A stretch of 31,059 nt of DNA. It comes from a virus. Each line of letters starts with the position of its first letter. Positions within the stretch are counted from its first letter, which is position 1. Of the stretch, positions 12,262 through 30,175 are shown in pieces. The notes beneath the pieces were generated by a model. It was not told the DNA's origin, made no database searches, and saw only the letters and a program-made list of their open reading frames with translations. The stretch covers positions 1 to 31,059 of the IMG/VR virus record IMGVR_UViG_3300025127_000150, one strand, 5' to 3'. The position numbers and the translations under genes were made by a program.

Positions 12262-12370
12262 ATATAGAAACCACATGGTAATAATATGGATAGCCCTATT
12301 AATTATATTAGGGATGGTATCTTATTATGGGGAAGTCTATATCTCGAATCAAAGACCTAGCAGTAGGTGA
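12254..12370 (+). CDS. Membrane microprotein, TTG or internal ATG start
   Basis: An open frame of 38 codons starts with TTG 12254, 5 nt after GGAG; an internal ATG at 12275 would give 31 aa. The core MVIIWIALLIILGMVSYYGE is a clear membrane helix. It overlaps the preceding microgene by 8 nt and the following GD-motif gene by 44 nt in another frame. The large overlap lowers confidence. Confidence 0.4.
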   Translation: MDKYRNHMVIIWIALLIILGMVSYYGEVYISNQRPSSR

Positions 12371-12623
12371 TCTTGTTACTCATATTTTATATGGAAAAGA
12401 GTGGGTTGGTATAATTGTATCATTTAAGGATGAAGGAGATTCACCAAGGGGAGAAAAAGCTCTAGTCCAAATGCAACCGGGAACGCGCTATGAAAGTTTT
12501 TTTGCAAAAAGCGTCTCAAAGAAAGATAGAAAAAACGACAGCTTAGGATATGTTACAAGCAATTGGCTATTTAAGCTTGAGGTAGAAAGTGCAAGTTCTA
12601 GATTTACACGGAACAAGACATGA
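12327..12623 (+). CDS. GD-motif small SH3/KOW-like protein (98 aa), first family member
   Basis: Residues 8-35 read IKDLAVGDLVTHILYGKEW then VGIIVSF, the family pattern: GDLV strand, a loop, then G[IV][IV]xx[VF]. Later ALVQMQPGTR and WLFKLEV supply further strands. The C-terminal 10 residues are read through the start of the Smr-like gene (35-nt overlap). It is separated from the main arrays and is the leftmost copy of the family. The SH3/KOW/Tudor-like barrel is predicted from the strand pattern only. Confidence 0.7.
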   Translation: MGKSISRIKDLAVGDLVTHILYGKEWVGIIVSFKDEGDSPRGEKALVQMQPGTRYESFFAKSVSKKDRKNDSLGYVTSNWLFKLEVESASSRFTRNKT

Positions 12624-12804
12624 AAAGGCTGATGACATAGTGAGAAGATTCCTCAATCATGTCGACTTGCCATGTGAGATAATAACAGGAAACTCTCCAG
12701 ATATGAAAAGGATAGTAAAGAAAATTGTCTCTGAGTACCTTTGGGTCTGCTACGAAAAGGATTATTATAACTACGGAACACTAATTATAAGTGAAAGGAT
12801 TTAA
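12589..12804 (+). CDS. Small Smr-like domain protein, GTG start
   Basis: The 71-aa protein starts at GTG 12589 with GAGG about 7 nt upstream. It shows V-L-D-L-H-G at residues 3-8, then a helix (EKADDIVRRFLNHV), IITGNS (31-36), a helix with MKRIVKKIVSEYL and a final strand (GTLIISE). LDLHG plus [IV]TGxS is the Smr domain signature; stand-alone Smr domains bind or nick branched DNA or RNA. It is about the minimum size for the domain. It ends one base before the next start region. Confidence 0.75.
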   Translation: MQVLDLHGTRHEKADDIVRRFLNHVDLPCEIITGNSPDMKRIVKKIVSEYLWVCYEKDYYNYGTLIISERI

Positions 12805-12805
12805 T

Positions 12806-13072
12806 ATGAAATATTTTCACTGTTTAGCTTTTCTCTTTGTACTGTCGTGTGTTGAGGACAGTGGTGTACACCAAGCAGATCAAAGTATATCTCAAAATTA
12901 TATAGAAATTTGCCATAATCCCGAATCAACTAATCACAGAAAAATTTGCACTGAAAAATGTTTTGAACCAAACTTAGGAAGTCATTCGTTTTGCTGGACT
13001 TTACCAGAACAAGACTGTCAAGAGCCGCTAATATATGAGTGGCAGAGAGAAAATTGTCATCTTTTTGATTGA
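12806..13072 (+). CDS. Small cysteine-rich lipoprotein
   Basis: The start ATG 12806 has AAGGA 8 nt upstream; it gives an 88-aa precursor beginning MKYFHCLAFLFVLSCVEDSG. L-x-S-C with Cys15 is a lipobox, preceded by a hydrophobic core. The mature part (about 74 aa) has six more Cys (including CHNPE, CTEKC, FCW, DCQ, NCH) that could form disulfides in the periplasm. Small phage lipoproteins are known as spanin partners or receptor-blocking superinfection-exclusion proteins; either is possible. The stop codon overlaps the -35 box of the uvdE promoter. Confidence 0.78.
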   Translation: MKYFHCLAFLFVLSCVEDSGVHQADQSISQNYIEICHNPESTNHRKICTEKCFEPNLGSHSFCWTLPEQDCQEPLIYEWQRENCHLFD

Positions 13073-13097
13073 CATTTTATAAAAAATAAGATAATAT
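13069..13097 (+). promoter_or_regulatory. uvdE promoter
   Basis: TTGACA (13069-13074) overlapping the upstream stop codon, 17-bp A/T-rich spacer, TAATAT (13092-13097). It is 33 nt upstream of the uvdE ATG, which has AAGGAGAAG as ribosome site. Confidence 0.78.
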
Positions 13098-13130
13098 ATA
13101 CACACACAAAGTAACAACAAGGAGAAGTCC

Positions 13131-14063
13131 ATGAACTACGGATACGCATGTATCAATATGACTTTATCTGATGTGCCTAAGTCTAAGCGCATCACAACCA
13201 ACCGGTCCATGATAAAAAGAACCTTCAGCGAAAAGGGTATTAAATATGCCTCTGAGCTTGCACTACAGAATGTACTCGACCTTGAGAAGATCCTCAAATG
13301 GAACGAACAGAGAGGTATCAGATTCTACCGTATGTCATCTGACATCTTTCCTTGGGCCTCAGAGTACGAGTATAACGATTTGCCGGACATTTCTACTATC
13401 CGTAGGGTACTAACTAGGGTTGGAGAGTATGCGGTCTCTAACGGCCACCGCTTGACCTTTCACCCAGGTCCGTTTTGTTGTCTTGCCTCGCCGAACCAGA
13501 CTGTTGTGGACAAGACCTATAAGGAACTTAACAATCATTCTCGTATTTTTGATATGATGGGCTTCTTTCCTAGTCACTATAACAAGATTAACATTCATGT
13601 CGGCGGTACATACGGAGACAAAGAAGCAACCGCAAAGCGATTCATCAAAAACTTTCTCAAGCCGGCCGGTCTCGATGAGAACTGTAAGAAACGCTTCACG
13701 TTAGAAAACGACGACAAAGCTTCAATGTGGAGCACAAAGGAGATTTATGAAAAGATTCACCACGAAACTGGAATCCCGATTGTTTTCGATTACCATCACC
13801 ATCGATTCTGCACTGGAGGACTCACAGAAAGACAGGCACTCGAACTCGCAGCCTCAACTTGGCCAGAAGGAATCAATCCCGTTGTTCACGTCTCAGAGTC
13901 GAGAGCTATTGAACAAGGCGACCCAAAAATTCGCCCGCAAGCTCATTCGGATTTTATCGAAAGACAAGTAGATTCTTATGGTCAAAGGCACGATATAATG
14001 CTTGAATGTAAGAAGAAAGAATTGGCTCTATTGAGACTCAGAGACAAAATTTTGACAAAATAG
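13131..14063 (+). CDS. uvdE: UV damage endonuclease (UvdE/UVDE)
   Basis: The 310-aa TIM-barrel enzyme cuts DNA 5' to UV photoproducts, starting an alternative excision repair. Family motifs in order: YACINMTL (5-12), FYRMSSDIFPW (65-75), LTFHPGP with His111, NIHVGGTYGDK with His156, TLENDD with Glu192, VFDYHHH with Asp220 and His223, PVVHVSES with His253, PQAHSDFI with His272 and MLECKKKE with Glu292. These match most of the metal ligands of the Thermus enzyme, and length is normal. AAGGAG precedes the ATG. It is a single-gene unit with its own promoter, with a further promoter starting in its last codons. It would protect phage DNA in sunlit water. Confidence 0.95.
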   Translation: MNYGYACINMTLSDVPKSKRITTNRSMIKRTFSEKGIKYASELALQNVLDLEKILKWNEQRGIRFYRMSSDIFPWASEYEYNDLPDISTIRRVLTRVGEYAVSNGHRLTFHPGPFCCLASPNQTVVDKTYKELNNHSRIFDMMGFFPSHYNKINIHVGGTYGDKEATAKRFIKNFLKPAGLDENCKKRFTLENDDKASMWSTKEIYEKIHHETGIPIVFDYHHHRFCTGGLTERQALELAASTWPEGINPVVHVSESRAIEQGDPKIRPQAHSDFIERQVDSYGQRHDIMLECKKKELALLRLRDKILTK

Positions 14064-14081
14064 TCAAGCTTTTGAACTATT
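14052..14081 (+). promoter_or_regulatory. Candidate promoter giving a leaderless mRNA for the 14088 gene
   Basis: TTGACA (14052-14057) inside the last uvdE codons, an 18-bp spacer and ACTATT (14076-14081) preceded by TGa. Six bases separate the -10 from ATG 14088, so the predicted transcript begins at the start codon. The -10 is a weak match. Confidence 0.45.
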
Positions 14082-14087
14082 TACAGT

Positions 14088-15001: not shown

Positions 15002-15166
15002 ATGATTGAACTTTTACTAGGGATTGCAATTTTGCTATTTATCAGAAACCGCATGAAAGCTAGTTTCGTCCAGAGTCAAAAAGAAGAACTCATGAGGGAA
15101 GTAGTAAGACAGGTAAATCAAAAAAGAAAACTGGATGAGCTTTATGGAAGAAATCAAGACAGGTGA
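15002..15166 (+). CDS. 54-aa membrane-anchored microprotein
   Basis: ATG 15002 begins MIELLLGIAILLFIRNRMKA: an N-terminal membrane helix (residues 2-15), then a charged cytoplasmic helix (KEELMREVVRQVNQKRKLDE). AAGG lies about 15 nt upstream, further than usual, so the ribosome site is weak. It overlaps the next gene by 23 nt. This type-I-like layout is common in phage inner-membrane microproteins. Confidence 0.5.
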   Translation: MIELLLGIAILLFIRNRMKASFVQSQKEELMREVVRQVNQKRKLDELYGRNQDR

Positions 15167-15314
15167 TTACGTACAGTACCGATCAGCACAGGGCGAAGTT
15201 ATGGGGTATGGCATTATCGTTGAGGTAACTGAACACTGGCATATACTGATAGACCAGCACACAGGTAAGAGAGAACACTGGTGTGACACTTTAATGAGAA
15301 AAATTGTACCATGA
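15144..15314 (+). CDS. GD-motif small protein (56 aa)
   Basis: MEEIKTGDYVQYRSAQG then GYGIIVEVTEHWHILIDQHT and a C-terminal strand (LMRKIVP) give the whole family pattern in 56 residues, one of the shortest copies. ATG 15144 lies inside the previous microgene. The stop overlaps the next start as ATGA. It opens the first array of GD-motif genes. Confidence 0.7.
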   Translation: MEEIKTGDYVQYRSAQGEVMGYGIIVEVTEHWHILIDQHTGKREHWCDTLMRKIVP

Positions 15315-15499
15315 AAATCGGTGATTTAGTTAGAAATGGGCAAGGTCACACAGGAATCGTGACGGGTCTAGGTTACGCTGGCAAGTGTCCGAGTTATGAA
15401 AAGAGCGCATTCTTGAATCCTGACGTCCACGTCGTCACAGCACACGGCAAAAGATTATGGAGTTACAAAGCATTGGTGGTGATCAGTGAAGGTCGGTGA
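15311..15499 (+). CDS. GD-motif small protein (62 aa)
   Basis: MKIGDLVRNGQGHTGIVTGL then VHVVTAHGKRLWSYKALVVI and the family ending ISEGR. Overlaps the preceding stop by 4 nt and the next gene by exactly 14 nt. Its C-terminal codons contain the GGTGGTGATCA that precedes the GTG of the next gene. Confidence 0.75.
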   Translation: MKIGDLVRNGQGHTGIVTGLGYAGKCPSYEKSAFLNPDVHVVTAHGKRLWSYKALVVISEGR

Positions 15500-15677
15500 T
15501 TTGGTGATGTGGAAATGGGACGGTAAACTAGACCCTGAAAAGACAGGTATTATTATTTCAGATTATACGCAATCCATCCCACCAGACGGCGGCTTTTACA
15601 AAAATGTTTATTGGTTTGATTGCCGATGGGTGAGGCCAATCAACCCAGAGTATTTGGAGGTTATCGGTGCATCATAA
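15486..15677 (+). CDS. GD-motif small protein (63 aa), GTG start
   Basis: GTG 15486 starts MKVGDLVMWKWDGKLDPEKT, then GIIISDYTQ, NVYWFDCRW and a final strand (PEYLEVIGAS). The 14-nt seam overlaps the upstream gene. The codons for LEVIG contain GGAGGTTATCGGTG, the ribosome site and GTG start of the following membrane microgene, so here the seam now leads to a different type of gene. Confidence 0.75.
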   Translation: MKVGDLVMWKWDGKLDPEKTGIIISDYTQSIPPDGGFYKNVYWFDCRWVRPINPEYLEVIGAS

Positions 15678-15786
15678 CGAAGAATTTAGAAAAGACATTG
15701 AAAAAGTAGAGCAAGTCATACTTGGTATTTGTTTATATTCAATGCCGTTTGTTGTTGCTTTTTTAGTGAAAGTTGTAGTATTATAG
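15667..15786 (+). CDS. 39-aa membrane microprotein, GTG start
   Basis: GTG 15667 lies 6 nt after GGAGG, at the place where the array normally continues with a GD-motif gene. The product is MHHNEEFRKDIEKVEQVILG followed by a hydrophobic stretch (ICLYSMPFVVAFLVKVVVL). Stop TAG shares its G with the next GTG start. Confidence 0.55.
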   Translation: MHHNEEFRKDIEKVEQVILGICLYSMPFVVAFLVKVVVL

Positions 15787-15929
15787 TGGAAACAGCATTG
15801 TTTGGCTTTCAGCTTGCAGAAATACTTGATTCTATTTGGTCAGTGTGGTGTGTCGTATTGCTTGTAGCTGGTGCTGGAATCTGGACTCACGCAACATATT
15901 TTATGCAGGACGACAATGAAAATCGGTGA
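15786..15929 (+). CDS. 47-aa membrane microprotein, GTG start
   Basis: GTG 15786 overlaps the upstream TAG. One membrane helix (WSVWCVVLLVAGAGIWT) with an acidic C-terminal tail (MQDDNENR). The tail is encoded by the 14-nt seam: its stop codon is the TGA within the GGTGAT of the next GD-motif gene. A longer frame reaches back to 15729 but has no ribosome site. Confidence 0.5.
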   Translation: METALFGFQLAEILDSIWSVWCVVLLVAGAGIWTHATYFMQDDNENR

Positions 15930-16119
15930 TCTGATTGAAGCACGTCACGGTGAAATCGGCGTCGTGATTGAGGCAGAAATGATGTATCCGGGCCACCCAG
16001 ATTCCCCTACAAGCAGGATAAAGGTAAGGTGGCAAGGGGGACCACCTCGGTGGTGCCGCGACGATTTAATGTTTTCAACAATGGCAATAAAGAGAGTTTT
16101 GAGTCGTGCAGGTTGGTGA
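15916..16119 (+). CDS. GD-motif small protein (67 aa)
   Basis: The start ATG 15916 (AGGA upstream) gives MKIGDLIEARHGEIGVVIEA, then RIKVRWQGGPPRWCRDDLMF. A longer in-frame start at 15871 would run through the upstream gene and is rejected. Both ends are 14-nt seams. Confidence 0.75.
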   Translation: MKIGDLIEARHGEIGVVIEAEMMYPGHPDSPTSRIKVRWQGGPPRWCRDDLMFSTMAIKRVLSRAGW

Positions 16120-16303
16120 TTTGGTAAAAGAGACTTGGGGTATGGAAAGATCTGGAATTATTATAGCAGAAGTCGGTCAGACTAGTGGCGCCCACCGCAG
16201 GAGATTGTTCAAAGTCTTATGGGATGCTCTCTCTCCAACAAGTCCTACTTTGATAGGCCCACTATGGGAAGCACAAGCGGAGGTTATCAGTGAAAGTCGG
16301 TGA
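16106..16303 (+). CDS. GD-motif small protein (65 aa), GTG start
   Basis: GTG 16106 starts MQVGDLVKETWGMERSGIII, then RLFKVLWDAL and the family ending AEVISESR. The ribosome site for this start is poor, but the GGAGGTTATCA at its own 3' end drives the next gene. 14-nt overlaps on both sides. Confidence 0.75.
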   Translation: MQVGDLVKETWGMERSGIIIAEVGQTSGAHRRRLFKVLWDALSPTSPTLIGPLWEAQAEVISESR

Positions 16304-16490
16304 TGTTGTCAGGTGGACACCTATGGAAACGGCATACCACCACGCCTGTCTTGCTCCTGGCATTACAGACTTGACAGATGATAGAAAATGTGGTATTATC
16401 GTAGATAGAAATCCTAAATACTTTTTTGTTCTTTGGCAAAACAAAGAACTTTTAGCACAGCTACCAAACTCAATCGAGGTAATCAAATGA
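16290..16490 (+). CDS. GD-motif small protein (66 aa), GTG start
   Basis: GTG 16290, 6 nt after GGAGG, starts MKVGDVVRWTPMETAYHHAC, then CGIIVDRNPKYFFVLWQNKE and IEVIK. It resembles the 24951 copy (both MKVGDVV.WTP), which suggests these two arrays share ancestry. It stops in ATGA with the next microgene. Confidence 0.75.
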   Translation: MKVGDVVRWTPMETAYHHACLAPGITDLTDDRKCGIIVDRNPKYFFVLWQNKELLAQLPNSIEVIK

Positions 16491-16579: not shown

Positions 16580-16816
16580 ATGGAAGTCGGTGATTTAGTT
16601 ACGCTATCTTCGTATGGCAAGAAGATAAAAAGAACTGGTTGGATTAGAGATGGCGACGTAGGTATCATCAAGAAAGTCGGCGCATACAATACTTACAGGA
16701 TCCTCTGGTGTAACTCTATTTACAAGCACTCACAGAAACGAGACTACGCAACACGAGGAAGCTATTGGGATTGGCAAATGGGCTTTGATCGCCGCGACCT
16801 AAAGTTTGCAAAATAA
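16580..16816 (+). CDS. GD-motif small protein (78 aa)
   Basis: MEVGDLVTLSSYGKKIKRTG, then GDVGIIKKVGAYNTYRILWC and a C-terminal FDRRDLKFAK. GGAGAGAGAA precedes the ATG, so this copy has an ordinary ribosome site rather than a seam. The promoter of the next gene starts directly after its stop. Confidence 0.75.
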   Translation: MEVGDLVTLSSYGKKIKRTGWIRDGDVGIIKKVGAYNTYRILWCNSIYKHSQKRDYATRGSYWDWQMGFDRRDLKFAK

Positions 16817-16819: not shown

Positions 16820-16848
16820 TTGACAATTTATAACAACTAATGTATAAT
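16820..16848 (+). promoter_or_regulatory. Near-consensus promoter, -10 ends 6 nt before ATG
   Basis: TTGACA (16820-16825), exactly 17 bp, TATAAT (16843-16848): consensus in both boxes. The ATG of the next gene starts at 16855, the expected transcription start, so the mRNA should be leaderless. Confidence 0.88.
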
Positions 16849-16989: not shown

Positions 16990-17161
16990 AATTGGCGAAA
17001 TTGTAGAGATGAAGCACTCAGACAGAAGGCACAGGCACAAGGCAGTGGTATTAGGTTTTGAACCTAATAAGCTGTTCGACTCAGTTCAGTGTGTTAAGGT
17101 TATGATCATCGGTCGAGACAAGCCGACCTTCACCCTTTCTGATAGGATTGTAAAACTATGA
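16973..17161 (+). CDS. GD/GE-motif small protein (62 aa)
   Basis: ATG 16973, chosen because GAGGAGCGGAAAG precedes it, gives MTTGFEIGEIVEMKHSD, then HKAVVLGFEP, VKVMIIGRD and DRIVKL. Glu replaces the Asp of the GD motif. ATGA overlap with the following gene. Confidence 0.7.
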   Translation: MTTGFEIGEIVEMKHSDRRHRHKAVVLGFEPNKLFDSVQCVKVMIIGRDKPTFTLSDRIVKL

Positions 17162-17835
17162 TGACCGACGCCGAAAAGACGTTTATCTTTTTTTCTCACC
17201 TAAGCTCCGTGGAAGACCATATCGCCTATGGTGATAAGCAGTTCTATTTGTCTTTATTTTGGCAGCACGAGAATAAAAGAGAACTTTCTTCATCTCAATT
17301 GTATCACTTAGAGCGGTTGTATAATAGATACAGTATGGACGAAATTAAAAAGAAAGAAGAGTTTGCACAAAACTACTCCGAAGCACATCGTCGAGTTGCT
17401 GTAAGGTGTGCCCAATATTACGCGGACCAGTATCCTCCGTATTATGATGCTATTGTAGAAAAAGTTCTGAAAGATCCAGAAGGCCACACCCTCTCTTACA
17501 ATGAGTACAATAAGATGTGTAACAACAAGTATGCCTTAAAGATCTTGGCCTGCTACAAGGAAGAGGCGAAGTATCAGATTGGTGATTTTGTACAGATTAG
17601 GGCGACGAATAGAGTAGATATTGCAAACACTGACCAGAAAGCCGGACACATGCCTCGCAGGTCTGTCTGTTCTCAGATGGCCAATAAATTCTGCATGGTA
17701 ATTGAAGTAAACGCTAAACCAATTACCAGGGCCGCCAAGGGAGCAAGGGTCTACAAGGTACTAATTACTGACGAGGCTCAGCCAATTTACGCCCACGAGT
17801 CAGACTTGAAGAAAGCTAGGAGAGTCAAAAAATGA
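17158..17835 (+). CDS. Helical protein fused to a C-terminal GD-motif domain (225 aa)
   Basis: Residues 1-135 are helical and rich in Tyr (SSSQLYHLERLYNRYSMDEI, RVAVRCAQYYADQYPP). Residues 139-222 are a family domain: YQIGDFVQIRATN, a loop, FCMVIEVNAK, RVYKVLITDE and SDLKKAR. So the small domain can be a module of larger proteins. ATGA overlaps at both ends. Function not recognised; the fusion suggests that the small domain gives binding and the N-terminal part gives specificity. Confidence 0.75.
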   Translation: MMTDAEKTFIFFSHLSSVEDHIAYGDKQFYLSLFWQHENKRELSSSQLYHLERLYNRYSMDEIKKKEEFAQNYSEAHRRVAVRCAQYYADQYPPYYDAIVEKVLKDPEGHTLSYNEYNKMCNNKYALKILACYKEEAKYQIGDFVQIRATNRVDIANTDQKAGHMPRRSVCSQMANKFCMVIEVNAKPITRAAKGARVYKVLITDEAQPIYAHESDLKKARRVKK

Positions 17836-18807: not shown

Positions 18808-19044
18808 ATGACTAGGCAAAGTATTGACATTGGCGATCTTGTGGAGTGTTATCTCGGTAAGGGCGAAGAAAAAATGACAGGAGTTGTGGTTGAAAGAAAA
18901 GCAATCAACCCTGCGTATAACACTGACAGAGCCTTCCATCCAGATGAGTATCACTGCAAGGTTTTAATCTTAAACTCAGAACCAGAAAACGAACAACGAT
19001 GGATTCGTACTAAATGGTTGAAATTATTATCAAAATCTTCTTGA
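18808..19044 (+). CDS. GD-motif small protein (78 aa), predicted leaderless
   Basis: MTRQSIDIGDLVECYLGKGE, then TGVVVERKAI, YHCKVLILNSEP and WLKLLSKSS. No Shine-Dalgarno precedes the ATG, and a promoter-like element places the transcription start there. The last base pairs overlap the next promoter's -35. Confidence 0.7.
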   Translation: MTRQSIDIGDLVECYLGKGEEKMTGVVVERKAINPAYNTDRAFHPDEYHCKVLILNSEPENEQRWIRTKWLKLLSKSS

Positions 19045-19797: not shown

Positions 19798-20865
19798 ATG
19801 GCCGTTGACTTCACTACATTTTCACAGATCGTTCATCACGTAACCAACGTCCGCAAGCCTGTGTTGCTTCGTGGCCGCCACGGTATTGGCAAGTCCACTG
19901 TTGTGTATCAGTATGCTGCACAACAGAACATGGAAGTTGTCGAGCGTCGGGCATCTCAGATGACTGAAGGTGACTTGGTTGGTTTGCCATCCATTGATGA
20001 CAATTCCACTACCTTCAATCCACCTGACTGGTTCAAGGCTGCTTGTGATCGTCCTGTTGTTCTGTTCCTCGATGAGGTCGACCGAGCCACTCTTGAAGTT
20101 CGTCAGGGTATTTTCGAGCTTACTGATTCTCGTAAGCTAAATGGTCACACCCTTCACCCTGACACGTTGGTTTTCGCTGCTGTCAACGGTGGCGAGCATG
20201 GCGCGCAATATCAGGTTGGTGAGATGGACCCTGCTGAGCTTGATCGCTGGACTGTGTTCGACATCGAACCATCTGTCGAGGATTGGTTGTCTTGGGCTAA
20301 GGAGTCTCAGGTATCAGATGAGATCTGGAACTTCATCAATCAGAACCGCAACCATCTTGAGCATACTGATGACTTTGAGCCAAACAAGGTTTACCCTTCA
20401 CGTCGCTCCTGGGAGCGTCTTGACAATTGTCTGACGCAGGCAGACTTGTTGAAGGAAGCAAGTCCTGTTCTATACAACTTGACATCCGCTTTTGTTGGCT
20501 TCGAGGCCGCTGTTGCTTTCAACGATTTTGTCCTGAACTACGACCGACAGGTCACGACAGACGATATCTTGATTCATGGCAACTTTGCTAAGGTTGCAGA
20601 CTTTGGTATCAATGACCACACTGCAATCATCGACAAGTTCGAGGCGGAAGAGACGTTCCACAATGAGCTTGACCAGGCGCTGGTTGATAACCTGGCTCGA
20701 TACTTTGTGATGCTGCCTTCAGAGGTTGCCATGAAGCTGTGGACTGTGATGGGCAAGGGCGATGTAAACAACACCGTCAAGCTGCACAAGTCTGAGGTTG
20801 ATGGAGAGTCTGTTTCTAAGCACTTTGTTCGACTCATCAACGGGTCGGAGGAAGATAAGAAATAA
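19798..20865 (+). CDS. MoxR-family AAA+ ATPase
   Basis: The 355-aa ATPase shows Walker A GRHGIGKST (26-34), Walker B VVLFLDEVD (87-95), sensor-1 Asn130 in VFAAVN and an arginine-finger region AELDRW (Arg150). GDLVGLPSIDD between Walker A and B is the MoxR-type pore or insert region. MoxR proteins work as hexameric chaperone-like machines with a VWA-domain partner, and the next gene encodes just such a protein. Codons are richer in C and G at third positions than in the surrounding small genes, which hints at higher expression or separate origin. Own promoter and ribosome site. Confidence 0.9.
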   Translation: MAVDFTTFSQIVHHVTNVRKPVLLRGRHGIGKSTVVYQYAAQQNMEVVERRASQMTEGDLVGLPSIDDNSTTFNPPDWFKAACDRPVVLFLDEVDRATLEVRQGIFELTDSRKLNGHTLHPDTLVFAAVNGGEHGAQYQVGEMDPAELDRWTVFDIEPSVEDWLSWAKESQVSDEIWNFINQNRNHLEHTDDFEPNKVYPSRRSWERLDNCLTQADLLKEASPVLYNLTSAFVGFEAAVAFNDFVLNYDRQVTTDDILIHGNFAKVADFGINDHTAIIDKFEAEETFHNELDQALVDNLARYFVMLPSEVAMKLWTVMGKGDVNNTVKLHKSEVDGESVSKHFVRLINGSEEDKK

Positions 20866-20868
20866 TTG

Positions 20869-20897
20869 TTGACAAATCGTACTACTTATAGTAAGAT
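20869..20897 (+). promoter_or_regulatory. Promoter for the metallopeptidase/VWA gene
   Basis: TTGACA (20869-20874) starting 3 nt after the moxR stop, 17-bp spacer, TAAGAT (20892-20897). The leader is about 30 nt, with TTGGAGG before the ATG. Confidence 0.75.
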
Positions 20898-20926
20898 ATA
20901 GTTGTACTTAATTATTGGAGGCTGTC

Positions 20927-22153
20927 ATGTCTGCTCAAGAATTTGATCTCAACCTGAACACCGCCCGTCTTCTCATGGAAGAACCTTTCTTTGCGGCTAT
21001 CTCACGTCGTATTGACAAGCGAGCATCTTACGCTATTCCCACCGCTGGGGTCATGGTCAATCCTGATACCGCTCAGTTCGAGATGCTTTACAATCCAAAG
21101 TTCTTTGCAGACTTGACAGACCTTCAACGTACTGATGTACTAAAGCATGAGTTTTATCATGTCTTGTTTGAGCATGTTACTGGTCGTATGCCTGACGGCG
21201 TGAACCTGAAGCTGTGGAACATCGCCACTGACCTTGCAATCAACTCGCACTTGCACAACCTACCAGAAGGGGGCCTAATCCCCGGTGAAAAAGATTCGCC
21301 ATTTGAGCATCTGCCCCAAGGCGAATCAGCAGAGTGGTACATGGCTAACATGCCTGACTTCAACAAGGACGATGGCAACAGCGAAGGTCCAAGTAGCAGC
21401 GAGTCTCAAGGTCAGGGCGGCGACGGCGGTGAACCAAGCGACAACCAGGGAGACGGATCAGGTATCCCCGATACCCTCGATGACCATTCAGGCTGGCAAG
21501 AGTGTTCTCAAGAAGTCAAGGAGATGGCTAAAGAGAGGCTCAAGGAAGTGGTGCGTAAAGCAGCAGAAGAAGCCAGCGCGTCTAACCGTTGGGGTTCAGT
21601 ATCCCAGGAGACTCGTAAGAAAGTTATGAAGATGCTTGAAACAAAGGTTGACTGGCGCAAAGTTCTTCGTTATTTTGTCAAGTCATCTCAACGCGCCAAC
21701 CGCTCCAGTTCTATCAAACGCATCAATCGTCGATACGCTTATGTCCATCCAGGGCGCAAGTCAAATCGTGTTGCTCGTGTTGCAGTATCTGTTGATCAGT
21801 CTGGCTCGGTGGATGATAACATGCTCGCTATGTTCTTCGCGGAACTTAACAAACTAGCACAGATTGCAGAGTTTGTCGTGATCCCTTTCGACACCCGCGT
21901 TGATGAGAGTAAGGTATTCACCTGGAAGAAGGGCCAGACTAAGTTGCCAGAACGAGTCTTGCAAGGTGGTACATGTTTTGATGCCCCGACCGAGTACGTA
22001 AATGGCAAGGGTTTCGATGGTCATATTGTGTTGACTGATATGTGCGCTCCGAAGCCAAAACCAAGCAAGTGTCAGCGTATGTGGATGACAACTAAGCAGT
22101 ATGCTGACAGGAACTATTTTTCAACCAACGAGCGCGTGGTTGCTGTAGATTAA
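20927..22153 (+). CDS. Putative metallopeptidase with VWA-like MIDAS domain (DUF2201-type)
   Basis: The start ATG 20927 has GGAGG upstream (the longer TTG frame at 20915 covers the ribosome site). The 408-aa protein has HEFYH (74-78, an HExxH zinc motif) followed by LWNIATDLAINSHL, the typical DUF2201 N-terminal pair. A Gly/Ser/Gln-rich acidic linker (about 148-182) follows. The C-terminal VWA-like domain has a full MIDAS: D290-Q-S-G-S294, Thr349 in GGT and Asp371 in LTD. MoxR plus VWA/DUF2201 is a known bacterial pair for cofactor or metal-dependent remodelling. Whether it cuts proteins is not known. It likely acts with the ATPase upstream. Confidence 0.88.
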   Translation: MSAQEFDLNLNTARLLMEEPFFAAISRRIDKRASYAIPTAGVMVNPDTAQFEMLYNPKFFADLTDLQRTDVLKHEFYHVLFEHVTGRMPDGVNLKLWNIATDLAINSHLHNLPEGGLIPGEKDSPFEHLPQGESAEWYMANMPDFNKDDGNSEGPSSSESQGQGGDGGEPSDNQGDGSGIPDTLDDHSGWQECSQEVKEMAKERLKEVVRKAAEEASASNRWGSVSQETRKKVMKMLETKVDWRKVLRYFVKSSQRANRSSSIKRINRRYAYVHPGRKSNRVARVAVSVDQSGSVDDNMLAMFFAELNKLAQIAEFVVIPFDTRVDESKVFTWKKGQTKLPERVLQGGTCFDAPTEYVNGKGFDGHIVLTDMCAPKPKPSKCQRMWMTTKQYADRNYFSTNERVVAVD

Positions 22154-22447: not shown

Positions 22448-22672
22448 ATGGCAAAAAAATATGAACCCGGTGACTTTGTTGCTTGTTATATCACAAATAC
22501 AGAGGTATACGAAGATCTGTTAGCGTGGGGCATGGTTATTGAAGTGTCACCTACTTTAGAAGATATACTCGTCTTAGATAAGGATGGGACAAGAAACTGG
22601 TGGCCTGCTCATAGGTGGAGACCGCTAGATAACTTTGAGAGAAGTGTAGATATTTTTGGTATTTTAATCTAA
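22448..22672 (+). CDS. GD-motif small protein (74 aa), possibly leaderless
   Basis: ATG 22448 gives MAKKYEPGDFVACYITNTEV, then WGMVIEVSPTLEDILVLDKD and WRPLDNF. An in-frame TTG at 22430 has no support. No Shine-Dalgarno; TATATT (22436-22441) ends 6 nt before the ATG, as at other predicted leaderless genes, but its -35 is poor. Confidence 0.7.
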   Translation: MAKKYEPGDFVACYITNTEVYEDLLAWGMVIEVSPTLEDILVLDKDGTRNWWPAHRWRPLDNFERSVDIFGILI

Positions 22673-23843: not shown

Positions 23844-24022
23844 TTCGTATTTCTGTTGTTGTATTCTGTCTATTCCTTTCTGGTTGCCCACCAGAAGAAG
23901 ACTGTCAGAAAATCATGGAGTGCCAAGACGATCAAGAGATGGTCTGCGACAAGAATGATTCTGGTTGCGGTGAGGATTGTCACTACTACGTCGTTGAGCA
24001 TTGTTATGAGGTGTGTCGATGA
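23840..24022 (+). CDS. Cysteine-rich small lipoprotein (60 aa)
   Basis: ATG 23840 overlaps the previous TGA and has GAGGAG upstream. MIRISVVVFCLFLSGCPPEE gives a signal with lipobox L-S-G-C16. The mature peptide is only 45 aa with seven more Cys (EDCQ, MEC, VCDK, GCGEDC, HCYEVC) and net acidic charge, so likely a disulfide-rich outer-membrane or periplasmic lipoprotein. It resembles the 12806 product in type but not clearly in sequence. Superinfection exclusion or spanin function is a guess. Confidence 0.72.
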   Translation: MIRISVVVFCLFLSGCPPEEDCQKIMECQDDQEMVCDKNDSGCGEDCHYYVVEHCYEVCR

Positions 24023-24234
24023 TGGTTGGAGACTTGGTTAGGTTGTCAGAATATGGTATAAAGCGTGATTACAACCACGCACTGACGAAGGAGGACCCAT
24101 ATCAGGTTGGAGTTGTTACCAGTATACTTCTTGGTTCTTATCCTTACAAGGTCCATTGGATGAAAGCACACCGCGCGCCCAGTTGCTTTTTGGTGAACAC
24201 GCACTCAAGGAAGGAATTGAAGTATGCAACCTGA
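24019..24234 (+). CDS. GD-motif small protein (71 aa)
   Basis: Two adjacent ATGs (24019, 24022) overlap the lipoprotein stop. M-V-G-D-L-V-R-L-S-E-Y-G, then YQVGVVTSILLGSYPYKVHW and ELKYAT. The first gene of the second GD-motif array; GAGGTG lies upstream. Confidence 0.72.
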   Translation: MMVGDLVRLSEYGIKRDYNHALTKEDPYQVGVVTSILLGSYPYKVHWMKAHRAPSCFLVNTHSRKELKYAT

Positions 24235-24427
24235 TGCAATCAAAATTGGTGATTTAGTGAAGCTGCCGCCAAGTCTGATCTATTGGTGGGGAGACCAGAT
24301 TGGAATCATTGACATTGTAGAACCAGAAGAAAGCTCACACGTTACTTATCGAGTGTTTGTTCCAGGCAAGGGCCACGCGCGCTTCGGTGATGTAAATTTC
24401 GTGGAGGTTATCAGTGAAAGTCGGTGA
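24224..24427 (+). CDS. GD-motif small protein (67 aa)
   Basis: MQPDAIKIGDLVKLPPSLIY, then IGIIDIVEP, TYRVFVPG and the family ending VEVISESR. Its start lies 11 nt inside the upstream gene. The GTGGAGGTTATCA at its end is the ribosome site for the next GTG start, via a 14-nt seam. Confidence 0.78.
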   Translation: MQPDAIKIGDLVKLPPSLIYWWGDQIGIIDIVEPEESSHVTYRVFVPGKGHARFGDVNFVEVISESR

Positions 24428-24602
24428 TTTAGTAAATCGTAAAATAGAGCCTTGGGAATATCATAGAACCAACACCCCAGACTTTGGTATTGGCGTTGTG
24501 ACATATTATGATGGCCATGGCAAGTTCAAGGTTCTGTGGTCAAATTACAGCAAGCCTATTTCTCACGATATCTATGAGTTGGTACCACATGCGAATCGGT
24601 GA
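24414..24602 (+). CDS. GD-motif small protein (62 aa), GTG start
   Basis: MKVGDLVNRKIEPWEYHRTN, then FGIGVVTYYDGHGKFKVLWS and YELVPHANR. Start and stop are both within 14-nt seams. The K-F-K-V-L-W strand is shared with several copies. Confidence 0.78.
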   Translation: MKVGDLVNRKIEPWEYHRTNTPDFGIGVVTYYDGHGKFKVLWSNYSKPISHDIYELVPHANR

Positions 24603-24762
24603 TATTGTAAAATACGGATACTCAATCTACGATGACGGTTCGCCCGTTATTGGAAAGGTATTATCTATAAACCATGAAGGCGGTACAATCAAGGTGCTGG
24701 ACAAGTACGGCGAGATCGACTGGTTTGTCACGAGCTATTGCGAGGTTATAGATGAAAATTAA
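24589..24762 (+). CDS. GD-motif small protein (57 aa)
   Basis: ATG 24589, in the 14-nt seam, gives MRIGDIVKYGYSIYDDGSPV, then IGKVLSINHEGGTIKVLDKY and YCEVIDEN. A longer frame from 24508 would overlap the previous gene completely and is rejected. It overlaps the next gene by 11 nt. Confidence 0.75.
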   Translation: MRIGDIVKYGYSIYDDGSPVIGKVLSINHEGGTIKVLDKYGEIDWFVTSYCEVIDEN

Positions 24763-24964
24763 AGTTGGCGACCTCGTAACTGATGATTTCTATGAGGATC
24801 TGGGGATCGTTATCTCGGCGCCGAGATTATCAGCAGATTGTGACACCAAAGCTTTGGGAGTTATGAACGGGGATGTCTATGATGTTGTGGATGTGCTTTG
24901 TCCTGATGGAAGTGTCCGATTGTTCACTACCGATGAATTGAGGATTATCAATGAAAGTCGGTGA
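24752..24964 (+). CDS. GD-motif small protein (70 aa)
   Basis: MKIKVGDLVTDDFYEDLGIV, then VYDVVDVLCPDGSVRLFTTD and the family ending RIINESR. GAGG lies 7 nt before the ATG, inside codons for CEVI of the previous gene. Ends in a 14-nt seam. Confidence 0.78.
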   Translation: MKIKVGDLVTDDFYEDLGIVISAPRLSADCDTKALGVMNGDVYDVVDVLCPDGSVRLFTTDELRIINESR

Positions 24965-25169
24965 TGTTGTAGCTTGGACACCAACAAGGGGTGTATACTG
25001 CTCTCAGAAAGTTAAGTTTGTTGGTGTTGTAACAGAGGTTATCCCTGCGAGTTGCACCCCATACGCCACCGAAGGTCATGTTTATGTGATTTGGAACGAG
25101 TCAACACTGCCAACCTTGAACGATCCAAGAGATGTAAAAGTTATTGAGATAGTCAATGAAAGTCGGTGA
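24951..25169 (+). CDS. GD-motif small protein (72 aa)
   Basis: ATG version of the seam start: MKVGDVVAWTPTRGVYCSQK, then FVGVVTEVIPAS, VYVIWNES and IEIVNESR. The first 10 residues are close to the 16290 copy. 14-nt overlaps at both ends. Confidence 0.78.
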   Translation: MKVGDVVAWTPTRGVYCSQKVKFVGVVTEVIPASCTPYATEGHVYVIWNESTLPTLNDPRDVKVIEIVNESR

Positions 25170-25329
25170 CTTAGTACAGCATGTTGACATACCAAAGAAG
25201 TGCCGCATAGTAGGCGTTGTAGTTGAAATTCGTGGTCCTGGCATTTGCGAAGTTATTTGGTTCGATAGGGACAATGAACGCTTTATACACCATCCAGGCT
25301 CGTTGGAGTTAATCAGTGAAAGTCGGTGA
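25156..25329 (+). CDS. GD-motif small protein (57 aa)
   Basis: MKVGDLVQHVDIPKKCRIVG, then VVVEIRGPGICEVIWFDRDN and LELISESR. At 57 aa it is easy to miss in gene calling, yet its seams on both sides are the standard 14 nt, which strongly supports it. Confidence 0.78.
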   Translation: MKVGDLVQHVDIPKKCRIVGVVVEIRGPGICEVIWFDRDNERFIHHPGSLELISESR

Positions 25330-25504
25330 TTTGGTAAAAGACAATCATCCAAGCCGGATGGGTGCTGAAAGAATCGGGGTGCTTGTCAATCAGACTCGAT
25401 TAGGCACATCATCGTTAAACAAGTCGTTTAGGGTGTTGTGGCACGATGGCTCCATTGGAAATAATGTTTGGGATTATGACTTAAAAATAGTAAAAAGTTC
25501 TTGA
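25316..25504 (+). CDS. GD-motif small protein (62 aa), GTG start
   Basis: MKVGDLVKDNHPSRMGAERI, then GVLVNQTR, SFRVLWHDGS and DLKIVKSS. Last member of the second array; the -35 of the next promoter overlaps its stop codon. GGAG lies in the upstream LELIS codons. Confidence 0.78.
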   Translation: MKVGDLVKDNHPSRMGAERIGVLVNQTRLGTSSLNKSFRVLWHDGSIGNNVWDYDLKIVKSS

Positions 25505-26509: not shown

Positions 26510-26676
26510 ATGAGGATACATTAAAAGAAGCGTTTAACGTCGCTGCTATCGTTGCTTTGCTTAACCATAAATTTGCTGTAAATTATGATAACGAAGATAA
26601 AGCAGAAGTCTTGACAGAAGTCTTAAATGATGTTAAACTATTACTACAACCAACAACAAACAACGAGGTTCACTAA
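26506..26676 (+). CDS. Small helical acidic protein (56 aa)
   Basis: MNEDTLKEAFNVAAIVALLN, then DKAEVLTEVLNDVKLLL: two amphipathic helices, acidic overall. Starts in ATGA with the upstream stop and ends in TAATG with the next gene. GGAG precedes the start. Confidence 0.6.
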   Translation: MNEDTLKEAFNVAAIVALLNHKFAVNYDNEDKAEVLTEVLNDVKLLLQPTTNNEVH

Positions 26677-27194
26677 TGAAGTACAAGTCTTTTATCAACA
26701 AACTCAAGAAGCGACTCGGCACCAAGGATCTGGATATTACTACTGATGAGTTCGGGGTCAATGGACGCAGAGAGTGGCTGGTTTATGGCGACACAGTGGC
26801 TCGCTGGCACGTAGAGAGAGGTGACTATCGCGATCCAGAGTCAGAACTTGTGGTGTCGAGCTTTCATACAAAGGGTGTTAATCAAGAGTCTGATCCGCAT
26901 ACTGACTATTTTCCTGGCACTTATTGGGACAATGCAACACAGCTAATTGATCGGCTTGTGCCACCACCGCCAAAGTTTACGCCTGGTGTCCTCGTTCGAG
27001 GCAAACCAGAAAACAAGCGCGCAAAGCGTCACGGCTATGCGGGTAAGACTGCATTGGTTATGGGAGCTAGTGGCAAATATATGAGTTTGCAATTCGTGTC
27101 TAACGACGACGATGAATGGCTTAGCAGCACTTGTACTAATGCCTGGAACAGGATGTCATATCCTGTGCGTGACTTCGAATTGGTGTCAGGATGA
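26676..27194 (+). CDS. Hypothetical protein with C-terminal small beta-barrel domain (172 aa)
   Basis: Residues 1-95 form an alpha/beta part (REWLVYGDTVARWHVERGDY). Residues 102-171 have the family layout: FTPGVLVRGKPENKRAKRHG, then YAGKTALVMGASGKYMSLQF and a closing strand (VRDFELVSG). With the 17158 gene this is a second fusion of the small domain to a larger part. ATGA overlap with the next gene. Function unknown. Confidence 0.7.
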   Translation: MKYKSFINKLKKRLGTKDLDITTDEFGVNGRREWLVYGDTVARWHVERGDYRDPESELVVSSFHTKGVNQESDPHTDYFPGTYWDNATQLIDRLVPPPPKFTPGVLVRGKPENKRAKRHGYAGKTALVMGASGKYMSLQFVSNDDDEWLSSTCTNAWNRMSYPVRDFELVSG

Positions 27195-27976: not shown

Positions 27977-27985
27977 TATTTTTAT

Positions 27986-28062: not shown

Positions 28063-28069
28063 AAGTATT

Positions 28070-28253: not shown

Positions 28254-28271
28254 CTTTTTTAATCTTTTTTG

Positions 28272-28300: not shown

Positions 28301-28323
28301 GTAAGTATAGAAAATGAGGATTT

Positions 28324-28396
28324 GCCCTAGTAGCTCAGTGGATAGAGCATCGGACTTCTAATCCGCAGGTCGTAGGTTCGACTCCTACCTGGGGCG
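28324..28396 (+). tRNA. tRNA-Arg (TCT)
   Basis: Acceptor GCCCTAG with CTGGGGC; anticodon loop CTTCTAA gives TCT; T-arm GTAGG TTCGACT CCTAC. CCA not encoded. The D-arm and anticodon arm are nearly identical to the Lys tRNA at 27371, suggesting a common origin. It reads AGA/AGG. Confidence 0.95.
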
Positions 28397-28419
28397 CAAA
28401 TTACCTTTGGTGATAGTAA

Positions 28420-28620
28420 ATGGCTTACAAAGTAGAATTGATAAAAATTAAAAAGAGCTACAGAAGTGTTATAGTCGATGCAGACAATCGAAGAGAAGCG
28501 TTGACAAAAGCGCGGTCTATGCCAGAAGATGAATTTGACGAGACAGAAAACACAGAGCAAGTTCAATGGGAAACAAAAAGAGAATGGAATTTGCTAGACT
28601 TTTTATTTAATAGAGTATAG
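28420..28620 (+). CDS. Hypothetical phage protein (66 aa)
   Basis: MAYKVELIKIKKSYRSVIVD then ADNRREALTKARSMPEDEFD: two strands and a helix, with an acidic second half. The V.AD...EAL..A pattern occurs in many small phage hypothetical proteins. The ribosome site is weak (GGTGAT). Confidence 0.62.
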   Translation: MAYKVELIKIKKSYRSVIVDADNRREALTKARSMPEDEFDETENTEQVQWETKREWNLLDFLFNRV

Positions 28621-28628
28621 GAGAAGAA

Positions 28629-28712
28629 ATGGACTTTCTTGGCGGAGTAATCACTATTGCAGTCGGCTTATGGGTTGGCCAGTGTTTGATTGATTGGTGG
28701 AGAAAAGGATGA
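28629..28712 (+). CDS. 27-aa membrane microprotein
   Basis: AGGAGAAGAA precedes ATG 28629. MDFLGGVITIAVGLWVGQCL followed by IDWWRKG: one membrane helix with a Trp/basic end. The stop overlaps the next start as ATGA. Confidence 0.55.
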   Translation: MDFLGGVITIAVGLWVGQCLIDWWRKG

Positions 28713-28897
28713 AAAAGTATCTAGAAACATACAGTGGCGATTTTATTGGTTTCTCCCGTCGAGACCTCGAACGCGCAAACAGGTCAGAACTTGTAGATTA
28801 TCTTGAAGCACGAGGTTCTGCTTGTTACGATGATGAATCAACAGAGCTTCTCCGAGCCGCTGCACTAGATGATTGGGACGGTGAGTACAGTGGTTAA
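28709..28897 (+). CDS. Small acidic protein with SAP-like helices (62 aa)
   Basis: ATG 28709 with AGAAAAGG upstream. FSRRDLERANRSELVDYLEA then RGSACYDDESTELLRAAALD: two helices joined by a turn in the L..LK.RG....G....L spirit of SAP domains, but without the usual basic residues. A longer frame from 28694 is not supported. Confidence 0.62.
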   Translation: MKKYLETYSGDFIGFSRRDLERANRSELVDYLEARGSACYDDESTELLRAAALDDWDGEYSG

Positions 28898-29150
28898 TTA
28901 TTCCAACAGAGACATCAACAAGCTTTTCGATGCTTACAATCCAAATAAAATCAAGTCTGGGGATCTAGTTATTGTCAAGCTGAGCCATGTAAGTTATTCT
29001 GCGAGAGTTGTTGGCTTGTCGCTGGACATGAAGAACAAAAAGGTGTATGCTGATCTTAAGCTAATTGAGCAAAACAGAAAGCATCCAACGCGCGTCGACG
29101 CCGCAGATTGTATGACGAGTGGTATGCCCTTATATCCTGGGCATCATTAG
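28869..29150 (+). CDS. GD-motif small protein (up to 93 aa)
   Basis: NKIKSGDLVIVKLSHVSYSA, then RVVGLSLD, KVYADLKLIEQN. The start is uncertain: ATG 28869, GTG 28881 or GTG 28890 are in frame and none has a clear ribosome site. It overlaps the upstream gene by up to 29 nt. Confidence 0.65.
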   Translation: MIGTVSTVVNYSNRDINKLFDAYNPNKIKSGDLVIVKLSHVSYSARVVGLSLDMKNKKVYADLKLIEQNRKHPTRVDAADCMTSGMPLYPGHH

Positions 29151-29166
29151 AATTATGGAGAAAGAG

Positions 29167-29367
29167 ATGGTAGATTTTTCAATGGGTAGCGCCCGCCGGG
29201 TCGCACGACAAATGGTTGATATGAGAGATGATAAGCGCAAAGCAATGTTAAAGACATTCCCAACGGATCTCAAGTGTAAGATTGTCGAAGAAATGGTAAA
29301 TATTAGACTTGAACGACTACGCGGACCAGATGGTGTGATTAGACCAGCGAAAGTGAGCGAACGATGA
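29167..29367 (+). CDS. Hypothetical basic helical protein (66 aa)
   Basis: ATG 29167 is preferred because GGAG lies 6 nt upstream; ATG 29155 (70 aa) is the alternative. MGSARRVARQMVDMRDDKRK and KIVEEMVNIRLERLRGPDGV are Arg-rich helices. ATGA overlap with the next gene. Confidence 0.6.
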   Translation: MVDFSMGSARRVARQMVDMRDDKRKAMLKTFPTDLKCKIVEEMVNIRLERLRGPDGVIRPAKVSER

Positions 29368-29624
29368 AGCGAGTAACTAACGATGAAGTGGCCCAAGCAT
29401 GGCTCGAAGGCAGAGAAGCAGTAAGCCACACAGGTAATTTCAGCACAGACGGAAAAAAGATTTACTCTTACGAATTGCAGATTGGTGACACATCTGATGG
29501 TAAAAAGATTGTCCGTGACTACACAGCAAAGGGAAGTTATGGTTTCCGATCACAGACGACATCTTGCCATGTTGGGTTGTTGCGTTGGGTTCCAGGCCAT
29601 GAGACTCAGCCGATTATCATTTGA
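29364..29624 (+). CDS. Hypothetical phage protein (86 aa)
   Basis: A short helix (TNDEVAQAWLEGRE), then a strand-rich part (KKIYSYELQIGDTSDGKKIV, then TSCHVGLLRWVPG). Its size and pattern suit small conserved phage proteins of unknown function. ATGA overlap upstream. Confidence 0.65.
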   Translation: MKRVTNDEVAQAWLEGREAVSHTGNFSTDGKKIYSYELQIGDTSDGKKIVRDYTAKGSYGFRSQTTSCHVGLLRWVPGHETQPIII

Positions 29625-29644
29625 CAATTCGCGGTATTTTTTTC

Positions 29645-29673
29645 TTGACAACCTGGTAATTCTCTGATATAAT
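29645..29673 (+). promoter_or_regulatory. Consensus promoter with extended -10, predicted leaderless start
   Basis: TTGACA (29645-29650), 17 bp ending TGA, TATAAT (29668-29673). Six bases later is ATG 29680, exactly at the expected transcription start. Confidence 0.9.
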
Positions 29674-29679
29674 GTCTGC

Positions 29680-29958
29680 ATGAAAAATAAAAAAGAATTA
29701 AAAGCTGGTGATCTAGTCCAGATCTGGGACTGGTACCGAGAAGATGCTGATCATACAGCCGCGTTAAAATTAGCCAATCACGGTGATCTTGGTTATTTGG
29801 TCAAGAGACTTACAGAAACAGAGAAGCACGTATCTGGTAGTGAAATTTGGGAAGTGATCTTTTTCGGACAAGATCCTCCTGCGAAGTCACCCGTTAACTC
29901 TTCTTGGTTGCACAAGGTCGATAAATCTTCAGACATCAAGAAGGTAGAAGATGAATAA
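29680..29958 (+). CDS. GD-motif small protein (92 aa), predicted leaderless
   Basis: MKNKKELKAGDLVQIWDWYR, then DLGYLVKRLTE, IWEVIFFGQD and WLHKVDKS. No Shine-Dalgarno: the consensus promoter puts +1 on the A of the ATG. It overlaps the next gene by 8 nt. Confidence 0.75.
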   Translation: MKNKKELKAGDLVQIWDWYREDADHTAALKLANHGDLGYLVKRLTETEKHVSGSEIWEVIFFGQDPPAKSPVNSSWLHKVDKSSDIKKVEDE

Positions 29959-30175
29959 ACTACTCAAGGTTGGAGATATGGTGATATTTAGCCATGAGTC
30001 AGATCATCCTTTCACTGGCGTCATAAAAAGGATTGAAACTGATAAATGGGGACGCCAGGATAATGTCTTTATACACTGGCAAGGCATACAGCCGCATGTA
30101 TACACTGACAAGTATGGATTTTCAGGCTTCAATATTCGTAACCTTCGCCACGAGTTCAAGGTCATCAGGCAGTAA
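29951..30175 (+). CDS. GD-motif small protein (74 aa)
   Basis: MNKLLKVGDMVIFSHESDHP, then FTGVIKRIETD, NVFIHWQGIQ and HEFKVIRQ. AAGGTAGAAG serves as ribosome site. Last member of the family in the window. Confidence 0.72.
   Translation: MNKLLKVGDMVIFSHESDHPFTGVIKRIETDKWGRQDNVFIHWQGIQPHVYTDKYGFSGFNIRNLRHEFKVIRQ

What the first reader, a model, noticed from the sequence alone, without database searches (positions are those of the whole stretch)
12327..30175. Expanded family of about 27 tiny GD-motif beta-barrel proteins in one phage genome segment
Seen: short proteins (or domains) with [KR][VI]GD[LV][VI] at the N-terminus, G[IV][IV]xx[VI] in the middle, [YF][KR]V[LI]W next, and L.VI at the end, at 12327, 14088, 14539, 15144, 15311, 15486, 15916, 16106, 16290, 16580, 16973, 17158 (C-terminus), 18232, 18483, 18808, 22448, 22839, 24019, 24224, 24414, 24589, 24752, 24951, 25156, 25316, 26676 (C-terminus), 28869, 29680 and 29951. 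Inference: paralogues with a common SH3/KOW/Tudor-like barrel and fast-changing loops. Such expansion in a phage points to a set of binders with different targets, such as host regulators or defence proteins.
Basis: partly seen in the sequence, partly recalled or inferred. Interest (0 to 1): 0.85.

Follow-up and report, generated by a model that had tools for sequence, protein, structure and literature searches.

The report
Shuffled cassette array of tiny barrel proteins
Uncultured marine relatives of phage T4 carry strings of tiny genes that all code for one small barrel-shaped protein fold, and the short sequence in which one gene ends and the next begins appears to act as a seam at which genes are gained, lost and reordered between viruses.

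Summary
The family is real but overcounted. Of 29 named places, 18 are found by a family profile, 2 more strongly and 3 weakly by profile-profile comparison, and 6 are unsupported. An AlphaFold2 model (pLDDT 92) is a five-strand SH3-like barrel. No Pfam or PHROG family covers it.

The more important feature was not in the finding. The genes are cassettes. A sharply bounded 32-nt element, TGGAGGTnATCARTGAAAGTCGGTGATTTGGT, holds the Shine-Dalgarno site, start codon and MKVGDLV codons of one gene and, in another frame, the last residues and stop codon of the previous gene. In 80 loci chosen by an unrelated marker gene, 79 carry the family and 454 of 929 neighbouring pairs overlap by exactly 14 nt.

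Between related viruses, homology breaks at these seams, whole cassettes are inserted or deleted with the seam as microhomology, and shared cassettes change order 6 to 15 times more often than other shared genes. The large records examined are T4-like, have a RecA-type recombinase, and have no detectable tyrosine or serine recombinase or reverse transcriptase. I conclude this is an integrase-free cassette array recombining at a coding seam. The proteins' targets are unknown; a binder repertoire is inferred.

The parts
12327..12623 (+). divergent member, 98 aa
   Evidence: profile E 1.1e-4
15144..15314 (+). member, 56 aa; 4-nt overlap with the next gene
   Evidence: profile E 4.2e-4; hhalign 95.7%
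15311..15499 (+). member; best conserved cassette, with 11 different successor and 9 predecessor clusters in other viruses
   Evidence: E 2.8e-10
15479..15505 (+). junction element (Shine-Dalgarno + start + stop), 14-nt gene overlap
   Evidence: coordinates
15486..15677 (+). member, 63 aa
   Evidence: E 1.1e-11
15916..16119 (+). member, 67 aa; 14-nt overlap with a non-family small membrane-like ORF upstream (15786-15929)
   Evidence: E 3.7e-10
16106..16303 (+). member, 65 aa; 14-nt overlap upstream
   Evidence: E 1.5e-9
16283..16309 (+). junction element
   Evidence: breakpoint of a 290-nt one-member indel against L111/L147 lies here
16290..16490 (+). member, 66 aa; 14-nt overlap upstream
   Evidence: E 1.2e-7
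16580..16816 (+). member, 78 aa, longer loops
   Evidence: E 1.6e-6
17158..17835 (+). two-domain protein: eight-helix domain plus C-terminal SH3-like barrel (about residues 140-220)
   Evidence: hhalign 84%; AF2 pLDDT 94.6
18808..19044 (+). member, 78 aa
   Evidence: E 2.5e-8
19798..20865 (+). MoxR-type AAA ATPase; anchor gene, not a family member
   Evidence: PF07728; 79 of 80 MoxR loci carry members
22448..22672 (+). divergent member
   Evidence: hhalign 94.9%
24019..24234 (+). member, first of eight consecutive members (second array)
   Evidence: E 8.2e-8
24224..24427 (+). member; 11-nt overlap upstream
   Evidence: E 9e-10
24407..24433 (+). junction element
   Evidence: one mismatch to consensus
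24414..24602 (+). member; 14-nt overlap upstream
   Evidence: E 9.3e-7
24589..24762 (+). member; 14-nt overlap upstream
   Evidence: E 1.4e-9
24752..24964 (+). member; 11-nt overlap upstream
   Evidence: E 7.3e-11
24944..24970 (+). junction element
24951..25169 (+). member; 14-nt overlap upstream
   Evidence: E 5.2e-11
25156..25329 (+). member closest to the family consensus; structure predicted; 14-nt overlap upstream
   Evidence: E 2.2e-15; AF2 pLDDT 92
25309..25335 (+). junction element
25316..25504 (+). member, last of the second array; 14-nt overlap upstream
   Evidence: E 4.8e-10
26676..27194 (+). 172-aa protein with a C-terminal family-like domain
   Evidence: hhalign 97.4%
28869..29150 (+). 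possible divergent member
   Evidence: hhalign 78%, 24 columns only
29680..29958 (+). possible divergent member
   Evidence: hhalign 89%
29951..30175 (+). member, 74 aa
   Evidence: E 3.4e-6; hhalign 96.7%

Best explanation
The window holds two arrays of gene cassettes, one on each side of a MoxR gene, in an uncultured marine T4-like phage. Each cassette is one short gene for an SH3-like barrel of about 60-70 residues. Neighbouring cassettes are joined by a 32-nt coding seam in which the Shine-Dalgarno site, start codon and first codons (MKVGDLV) of the next gene overlap the last codons (EVISESR) and TGA stop of the previous one by exactly 14 nt. Because every cassette begins and ends with the same seam, homologous recombination or strand annealing at the seam can add, remove or move a cassette while keeping both reading frames and ribosome-binding sites intact (inferred; probably by the phage's own RecA/UvsX-type system). 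Shown: the seam, exact overlap, predicted fold, breakpoints at seams, one-cassette indels with seam-length microhomology, and reordering. Inferred: the recombination enzyme, translational coupling, and the role of the proteins as a changeable repertoire of small binders acting on host or rival-phage components.
For: Seam: information content >=0.5 bit is confined to -12..+19 around the start over 454 junctions. Exact 14-nt overlap: 627 of 1171 pairs in motif-selected loci, 454 of 929 in loci selected only by MoxR, 9 in the window (coordinates). x[SGAN]R ends occur in 86% of members followed by an overlapping member and 9% of those not followed. Codon 3 is GTC in 79% (background 22%), and in 81 of 120 even where the upstream frame is closed, so dual coding alone does not explain the DNA conservation. 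Ends of >=95%-identity alignment blocks inside arrays fall at seams 86-90% versus 29% random; in MoxR loci 56-82% versus 26-29%. One-cassette indels with seam microhomology: L108/L112 176 bp with 27 nt, L050/L108 196 bp with 26, L038/L030 139 bp with 38, L171/L169 166 bp with 35. Order discordance: family 31.5% versus other genes 2.1%; with reciprocal best hits 26.9% versus 4.5%. RecA-type gene in 18 of 18 large records; tyrosine integrase, serine recombinase and reverse transcriptase in 0 of 18. Fold. Purifying selection, dN/dS 0.21.
Against: Cassette turnover (shared fraction 0.20) is no faster than that of other small genes nearby (0.22), so seams add reordering rather than extra gain and loss. 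The clean indels are few (about ten distinct events). Pairwise locus comparisons are not independent, and at >=80% identity the discordance rests on 5 versus 1 gene pairs. Data are metagenomic assemblies. No recombination was observed experimentally and no protein function was tested. Part of the seam conservation is explained by translation initiation.
Confidence: 0.72

Rival explanations
1. The seam is conserved only for translation (strong Shine-Dalgarno site, coupled reinitiation), and the arrays differ merely because phage genomes recombine at gene borders anywhere.
For: The seam contains GGAGG and the start codon; gene turnover outside the family is equally high; part of the identity is forced by dual coding.
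Against: Conserved third positions persist where no overlap is possible. Block ends outside arrays sit at ORF starts only 9-11% versus 6% random, against 65-90% versus 29% in arrays. Reordering is far stronger in the family.
Confidence: 0.15
2. Ordinary local tandem duplication of one gene in this genome followed by divergence.
For: All members share one fold and a common start sequence; arrays are tandem.
Against: Within-locus best identities are mostly 30-40% and never >=90%, while close copies lie in other viruses at other positions; one cassette cluster has 11 successor and 9 predecessor clusters.
Confidence: 0.05
3. A dedicated site-specific recombinase acts at the seam, as in integrons.
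For: Precise breakpoints at a short conserved site with fixed orientation (1008 of 1009 members on the MoxR strand).
Against: No tyrosine or serine recombinase in 18 large records; microhomology at events reaches 26-38 nt, as expected of homologous exchange. An unknown recombinase is not excluded.
Confidence: 0.08
4. The differences are assembly artefacts caused by short repeats.
For: All arrays come from metagenome assemblies and the seam is repeated.
Against: Seams (about 30 nt) are shorter than the k-mers generally used at the end of assembly (general knowledge). Motif-anchored and MoxR-anchored loci agree, and adjacent pairs recur across loci: neighbours are the same in 236 comparisons.
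Confidence: 0.05
5. On function: the proteins are KOW-like nucleic-acid or ribosome/RNA-polymerase binders that tune transcription or translation, rather than varied protein binders.
For: Closest solved folds and profile hits are Spt5, NusG, uL24 and eL14 KOW domains.
Against: Profile E-values are only 5e-4 to 0.01 and Foldseek E>=0.03. Net charge ranges from -8 to +6 with median 0, so the set is not generally basic. Tudor, SH3 and PWWP score similarly.
Confidence: 0.3

Closest known systems
PeSL (promoter early stem-loop) modular shuffling in T4-type phages (Arbiol 2010; Comeau 2014; cited in PMC4503421; papers not held, content from memory)
   Same: T4-like phages; short repeated sequence between small genes acts as homology for gene-by-gene shuffling.
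   Different: PeSLs are intergenic promoter-terminator cassettes beside unrelated genes. Here the repeat is coding (start/stop overlap) and the cassettes share one fold.
Start-associated sequences (SAS/ESAS) of cluster K mycobacteriophages (PMC3203893)
   Same: Short repeat at start codons containing the Shine-Dalgarno core, sometimes holding the stop codon of the upstream gene, in front of genes of different families.
   Different: SAS lies a few bases upstream of the start and is not reported to extend into the coding sequence or to be a seam of one-fold arrays.
Integron gene-cassette arrays
   Same: Arrays of small cassettes joined by a conserved site, gained, lost and reordered.
   Different: No integrase found; the seam lies inside coding sequence.
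SH3-like small barrel families: KOW, Tudor, PWWP; phage DUF4314, DUF2158
   Same: Five-strand barrel, similar length, comparable N-terminal GD turn.
   Different: No Pfam family matches more than 3 of 100 members even at E<=0.05, and the window members tested reach no Pfam cut-off.
Far-T4 phages (PMC4360716)
   Same: Uncultured T4-like lineage near Rhodothermus phage RM378; nearest named gp23 relatives here include RM378.
   Different: The passages of that paper read here mention no such arrays; RM378 and other named relatives lack them. Membership of these phages in Far-T4 was not tested by a tree.

Membership tests
SH3-like small barrel superfamily | five-strand, strongly bent small barrel | tested here: met
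   AF2 model of 25156, pLDDT 92, strands 6-9, 19-26, 30-35, 42-45, 50-54; KOW, Tudor and PWWP among top matches, TM 0.65-0.79
KOW family (PF00467) | matches the Pfam model above its cut-off | tested here: not met
   1 of 100 members at E 0.005; PDB profile hits to Spt5/NusG only at E 5e-4 to 0.01
DUF4314 | matches the Pfam model | tested here: not met
   not among the families matched by 100 members; only a structural neighbour in BFVD
Integron cassette array | tyrosine integrase in the element | tested here: not met
   0 of 18 large records
Integron cassette array | attC-like folded recombination site | not tested
   the seam is coding and was not folded
Modular shuffling by short repeats in T4-like phages | T4-like phage backbone | tested here: met
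   Gp23 in 18 of 18 large records; the window fragment itself was not shown to hold gp23, but its MoxR region is shared with such records
Modular shuffling by short repeats in T4-like phages | gene-precise exchanges at repeat copies | tested here: met
PeSL | repeat is an intergenic early promoter plus stem-loop | tested here: not met
   the conserved seam is a Shine-Dalgarno site with a start/stop overlap; conservation does not extend to a promoter
Diversity-generating retroelement | reverse transcriptase gene | tested here: not met
   0 of 18 large records

The most novel reading that the evidence does not exclude
A previously undescribed integrase-free cassette system: one structural fold supplies an open-ended pool of small binders, and the translated start/stop overlap of the genes is itself the recombination site, so that any cassette can be plugged next to any other in frame, in register and with its own ribosome-binding site.
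Probability: 0.45. Interest if true: 0.88.

Novelty: new variant of a known kind. Interest (0 to 1): 0.75.

Why it matters
It would show that a gene overlap can serve at once for expression and as a modular seam for shuffling, giving phages a plug-in repertoire of one-fold proteins without a recombinase of its own. The pool is large: 1772 distinct proteins in 1275 clusters at 60% identity from about 2.3 Mb of partly overlapping loci. It also gives a simple sequence handle for finding small host-takeover or counter-defence proteins in uncultured marine phages.

Tried and rejected
Pfam, PHROGs and PADLOC gave no family covering the set (a few members touch uncharacterised PHROGs such as 1690 and 9237). 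tblastn of two members against 50,697 phage records gave nothing. Six named gp23 relatives have no arrays, only one weak hit in each of two huge uncultured phages. Diversifying selection was rejected on average (dN/dS 0.21). An excess or avoidance of similar copies within a locus at 50-70% identity was not seen. Foldseek of the 17158 two-domain protein gave no clear function. Papers with the motif were not found; bioRxiv and many journals are not held.
Full report
WHAT WAS CHECKED. The window is a whole 31,059-bp virus record, apparently a fragment. All named open frames exist. The strict start motif occurs in 10 window proteins against 0.0135 expected from shuffles. A leave-one-out profile with decoys, then iteration over related loci, supports 18 members.

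FOLD. With 100 diverse members as alignment, gene 25156 is predicted with pLDDT 92 as a five-strand SH3-like barrel. The nearest solved structures include KOW (eL14, Spt5), Tudor (SMN, PHF1) and PWWP domains, with TM 0.65-0.79 but E>=0.03; a sequence profile touches Spt5, NusG and uL24 at E 5e-4 to 0.014. Pfam hits are scattered over many SH3-like families, none covering the set. The 225-aa protein 17158 carries a similar strand order after a helical domain (pLDDT 94.6). The proteins are under purifying selection (pooled dN/dS 0.21 over 113 pairs) and are not generally basic (net charge, 5th to 95th percentile, -8 to +6, median 0).

THE SEAM. Reading the DNA showed that the C-terminal ISESR of one gene and the N-terminal MKVGDL of the next are the same bases in two frames..GGAGGT TATCA GTG AAA GTC GGT GAT.. 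In those loci and the window 1291 members were found, and 627 of 1171 consecutive pairs overlap by exactly 14 nt. To remove selection bias I collected 80 loci by the unrelated MoxR gene 19798: 79 carry members, 1008 of 1009 on the MoxR strand, and 454 of 929 pairs overlap by 14 nt. Information content is confined to positions -12 to +19 of the start. The x[SGAN]R ending is present in 86% of members followed by an overlapping member but 9% of members that are not, so it belongs to the downstream start. A C-terminal hydrophobic strand is still common without a follower (67% versus 84%), so the last strand is a protein feature that is doubly encoded. Conserved synonymous positions (GTC 79% versus 22% background) persist at 68% where the upstream frame is closed and no overlap is possible; dual coding alone is therefore not enough. 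Shared descent through recombination, or a DNA- or RNA-level role, must contribute.

SHUFFLING. Members >=60% identical in different loci have different neighbours 566 times and the same neighbours 236 times. One cassette cluster (window 15311) has 11 successor and 9 predecessor clusters. Ends of highly similar blocks fall at seams 86-90% of the time in the first set (random 29%; outside arrays 9-11% versus 6%) and 56-82% in the MoxR set (random 26-29%). Single-cassette indels with 26-38 nt of seam as microhomology were read directly, for example L108/L112 (176 bp, 27 nt) and L050/L108 (196 bp, 26 nt), and L171/L169 (166 bp, 35 nt). The window itself differs from L111/L147 by a 290-nt indel with one member, with its edge in the seam near 16303. 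For loci whose MoxR proteins are 85-95% identical, shared cassettes are out of order in 31.5% of gene pairs and other shared genes in 2.1%; with reciprocal best hits and MoxR 80-97%, 26.9% versus 4.5%. The fraction of genes shared is about the same for both classes (0.20 versus 0.22): the seam is associated with reordering, not with faster turnover.

WHOSE GENES. Eighteen of 18 large records have the T4-type capsid gene gp23 and a RecA-type gene, and none has a detectable tyrosine integrase, serine recombinase or reverse transcriptase. Thirty-two large records hold 4 to 32 members each. The nearest named gp23 relatives (Flavobacterium immuto phages, Microcystis phage Mel-JY01, RM378) are distant and lack arrays. 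No host could be assigned. 'Marine' is inferred from the metagenome accessions and relatives, not from a stated source.

MECHANISM. Shown: one fold (predicted), seam, exact overlap, breakpoints at seams, reordering. Inferred: that the phage's RecA/UvsX-type recombination or strand annealing uses the seam; that overlap couples translation; that the proteins form a changeable set of binders for host or rival components. Structural kinship with KOW domains makes a role in transcription or translation the main rival for function.

NOVELTY. Shuffling at short repeats is known in T4-like phages (PeSLs; recalled, papers not held, cited in PMC4503421) and repeats at start codons are known as SAS (PMC3203893). 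I found no report of a coding start/stop seam joining cassettes of a single fold. I therefore call it a new variant of a known kind, with a fair chance that it deserves a class of its own.

Noticed in passing
window 16820-16848 and 29645-29673: Two perfect TTGACA-TATAAT promoters (0.07 expected). In related loci, other breakpoints carry 29-56 nt of TTGACA-rich promoter sequence as microhomology (L187/L177, L067/L075), which looks like PeSL-type promoter-mediated shuffling in the same phages.
   Followed up: partly
window 19798-22153: MoxR AAA ATPase next to a DUF2201 metallopeptidase/VWA protein sits between the two arrays; relatives of the MoxR gene were found in 245 viral stretches, and 79 of the best 80 lie beside members.
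   Followed up: partly
window 17158-17835: Eight-helix domain of unknown function fused to an SH3-like barrel, with orthologues in many related loci.
   Followed up: partly
   Followed up: no
window 1367-9069: A group of proteostasis genes: ClpP-like protease, GroEL-like chaperonin, Hsp20-like protein and a glutaredoxin-like protein; also a UvdE endonuclease at 13131 (Hsp20 and glutaredoxin by eye only).
   Followed up: no
window 3921-4541, 7724-8554 (minus strand), 9120-11576: Several unrelated proteins share an N-terminal 'LIMESW.KF..'/'..KWKQFLQEA' type segment, possibly a common tag or propeptide.
   Followed up: no
L129 (CP070664.1): Three members occur in a sequence labelled a WOR-3 chromosome, next to Lgt- and EF-G-like genes; probably a binning or joining error, not checked.
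   Followed up: no
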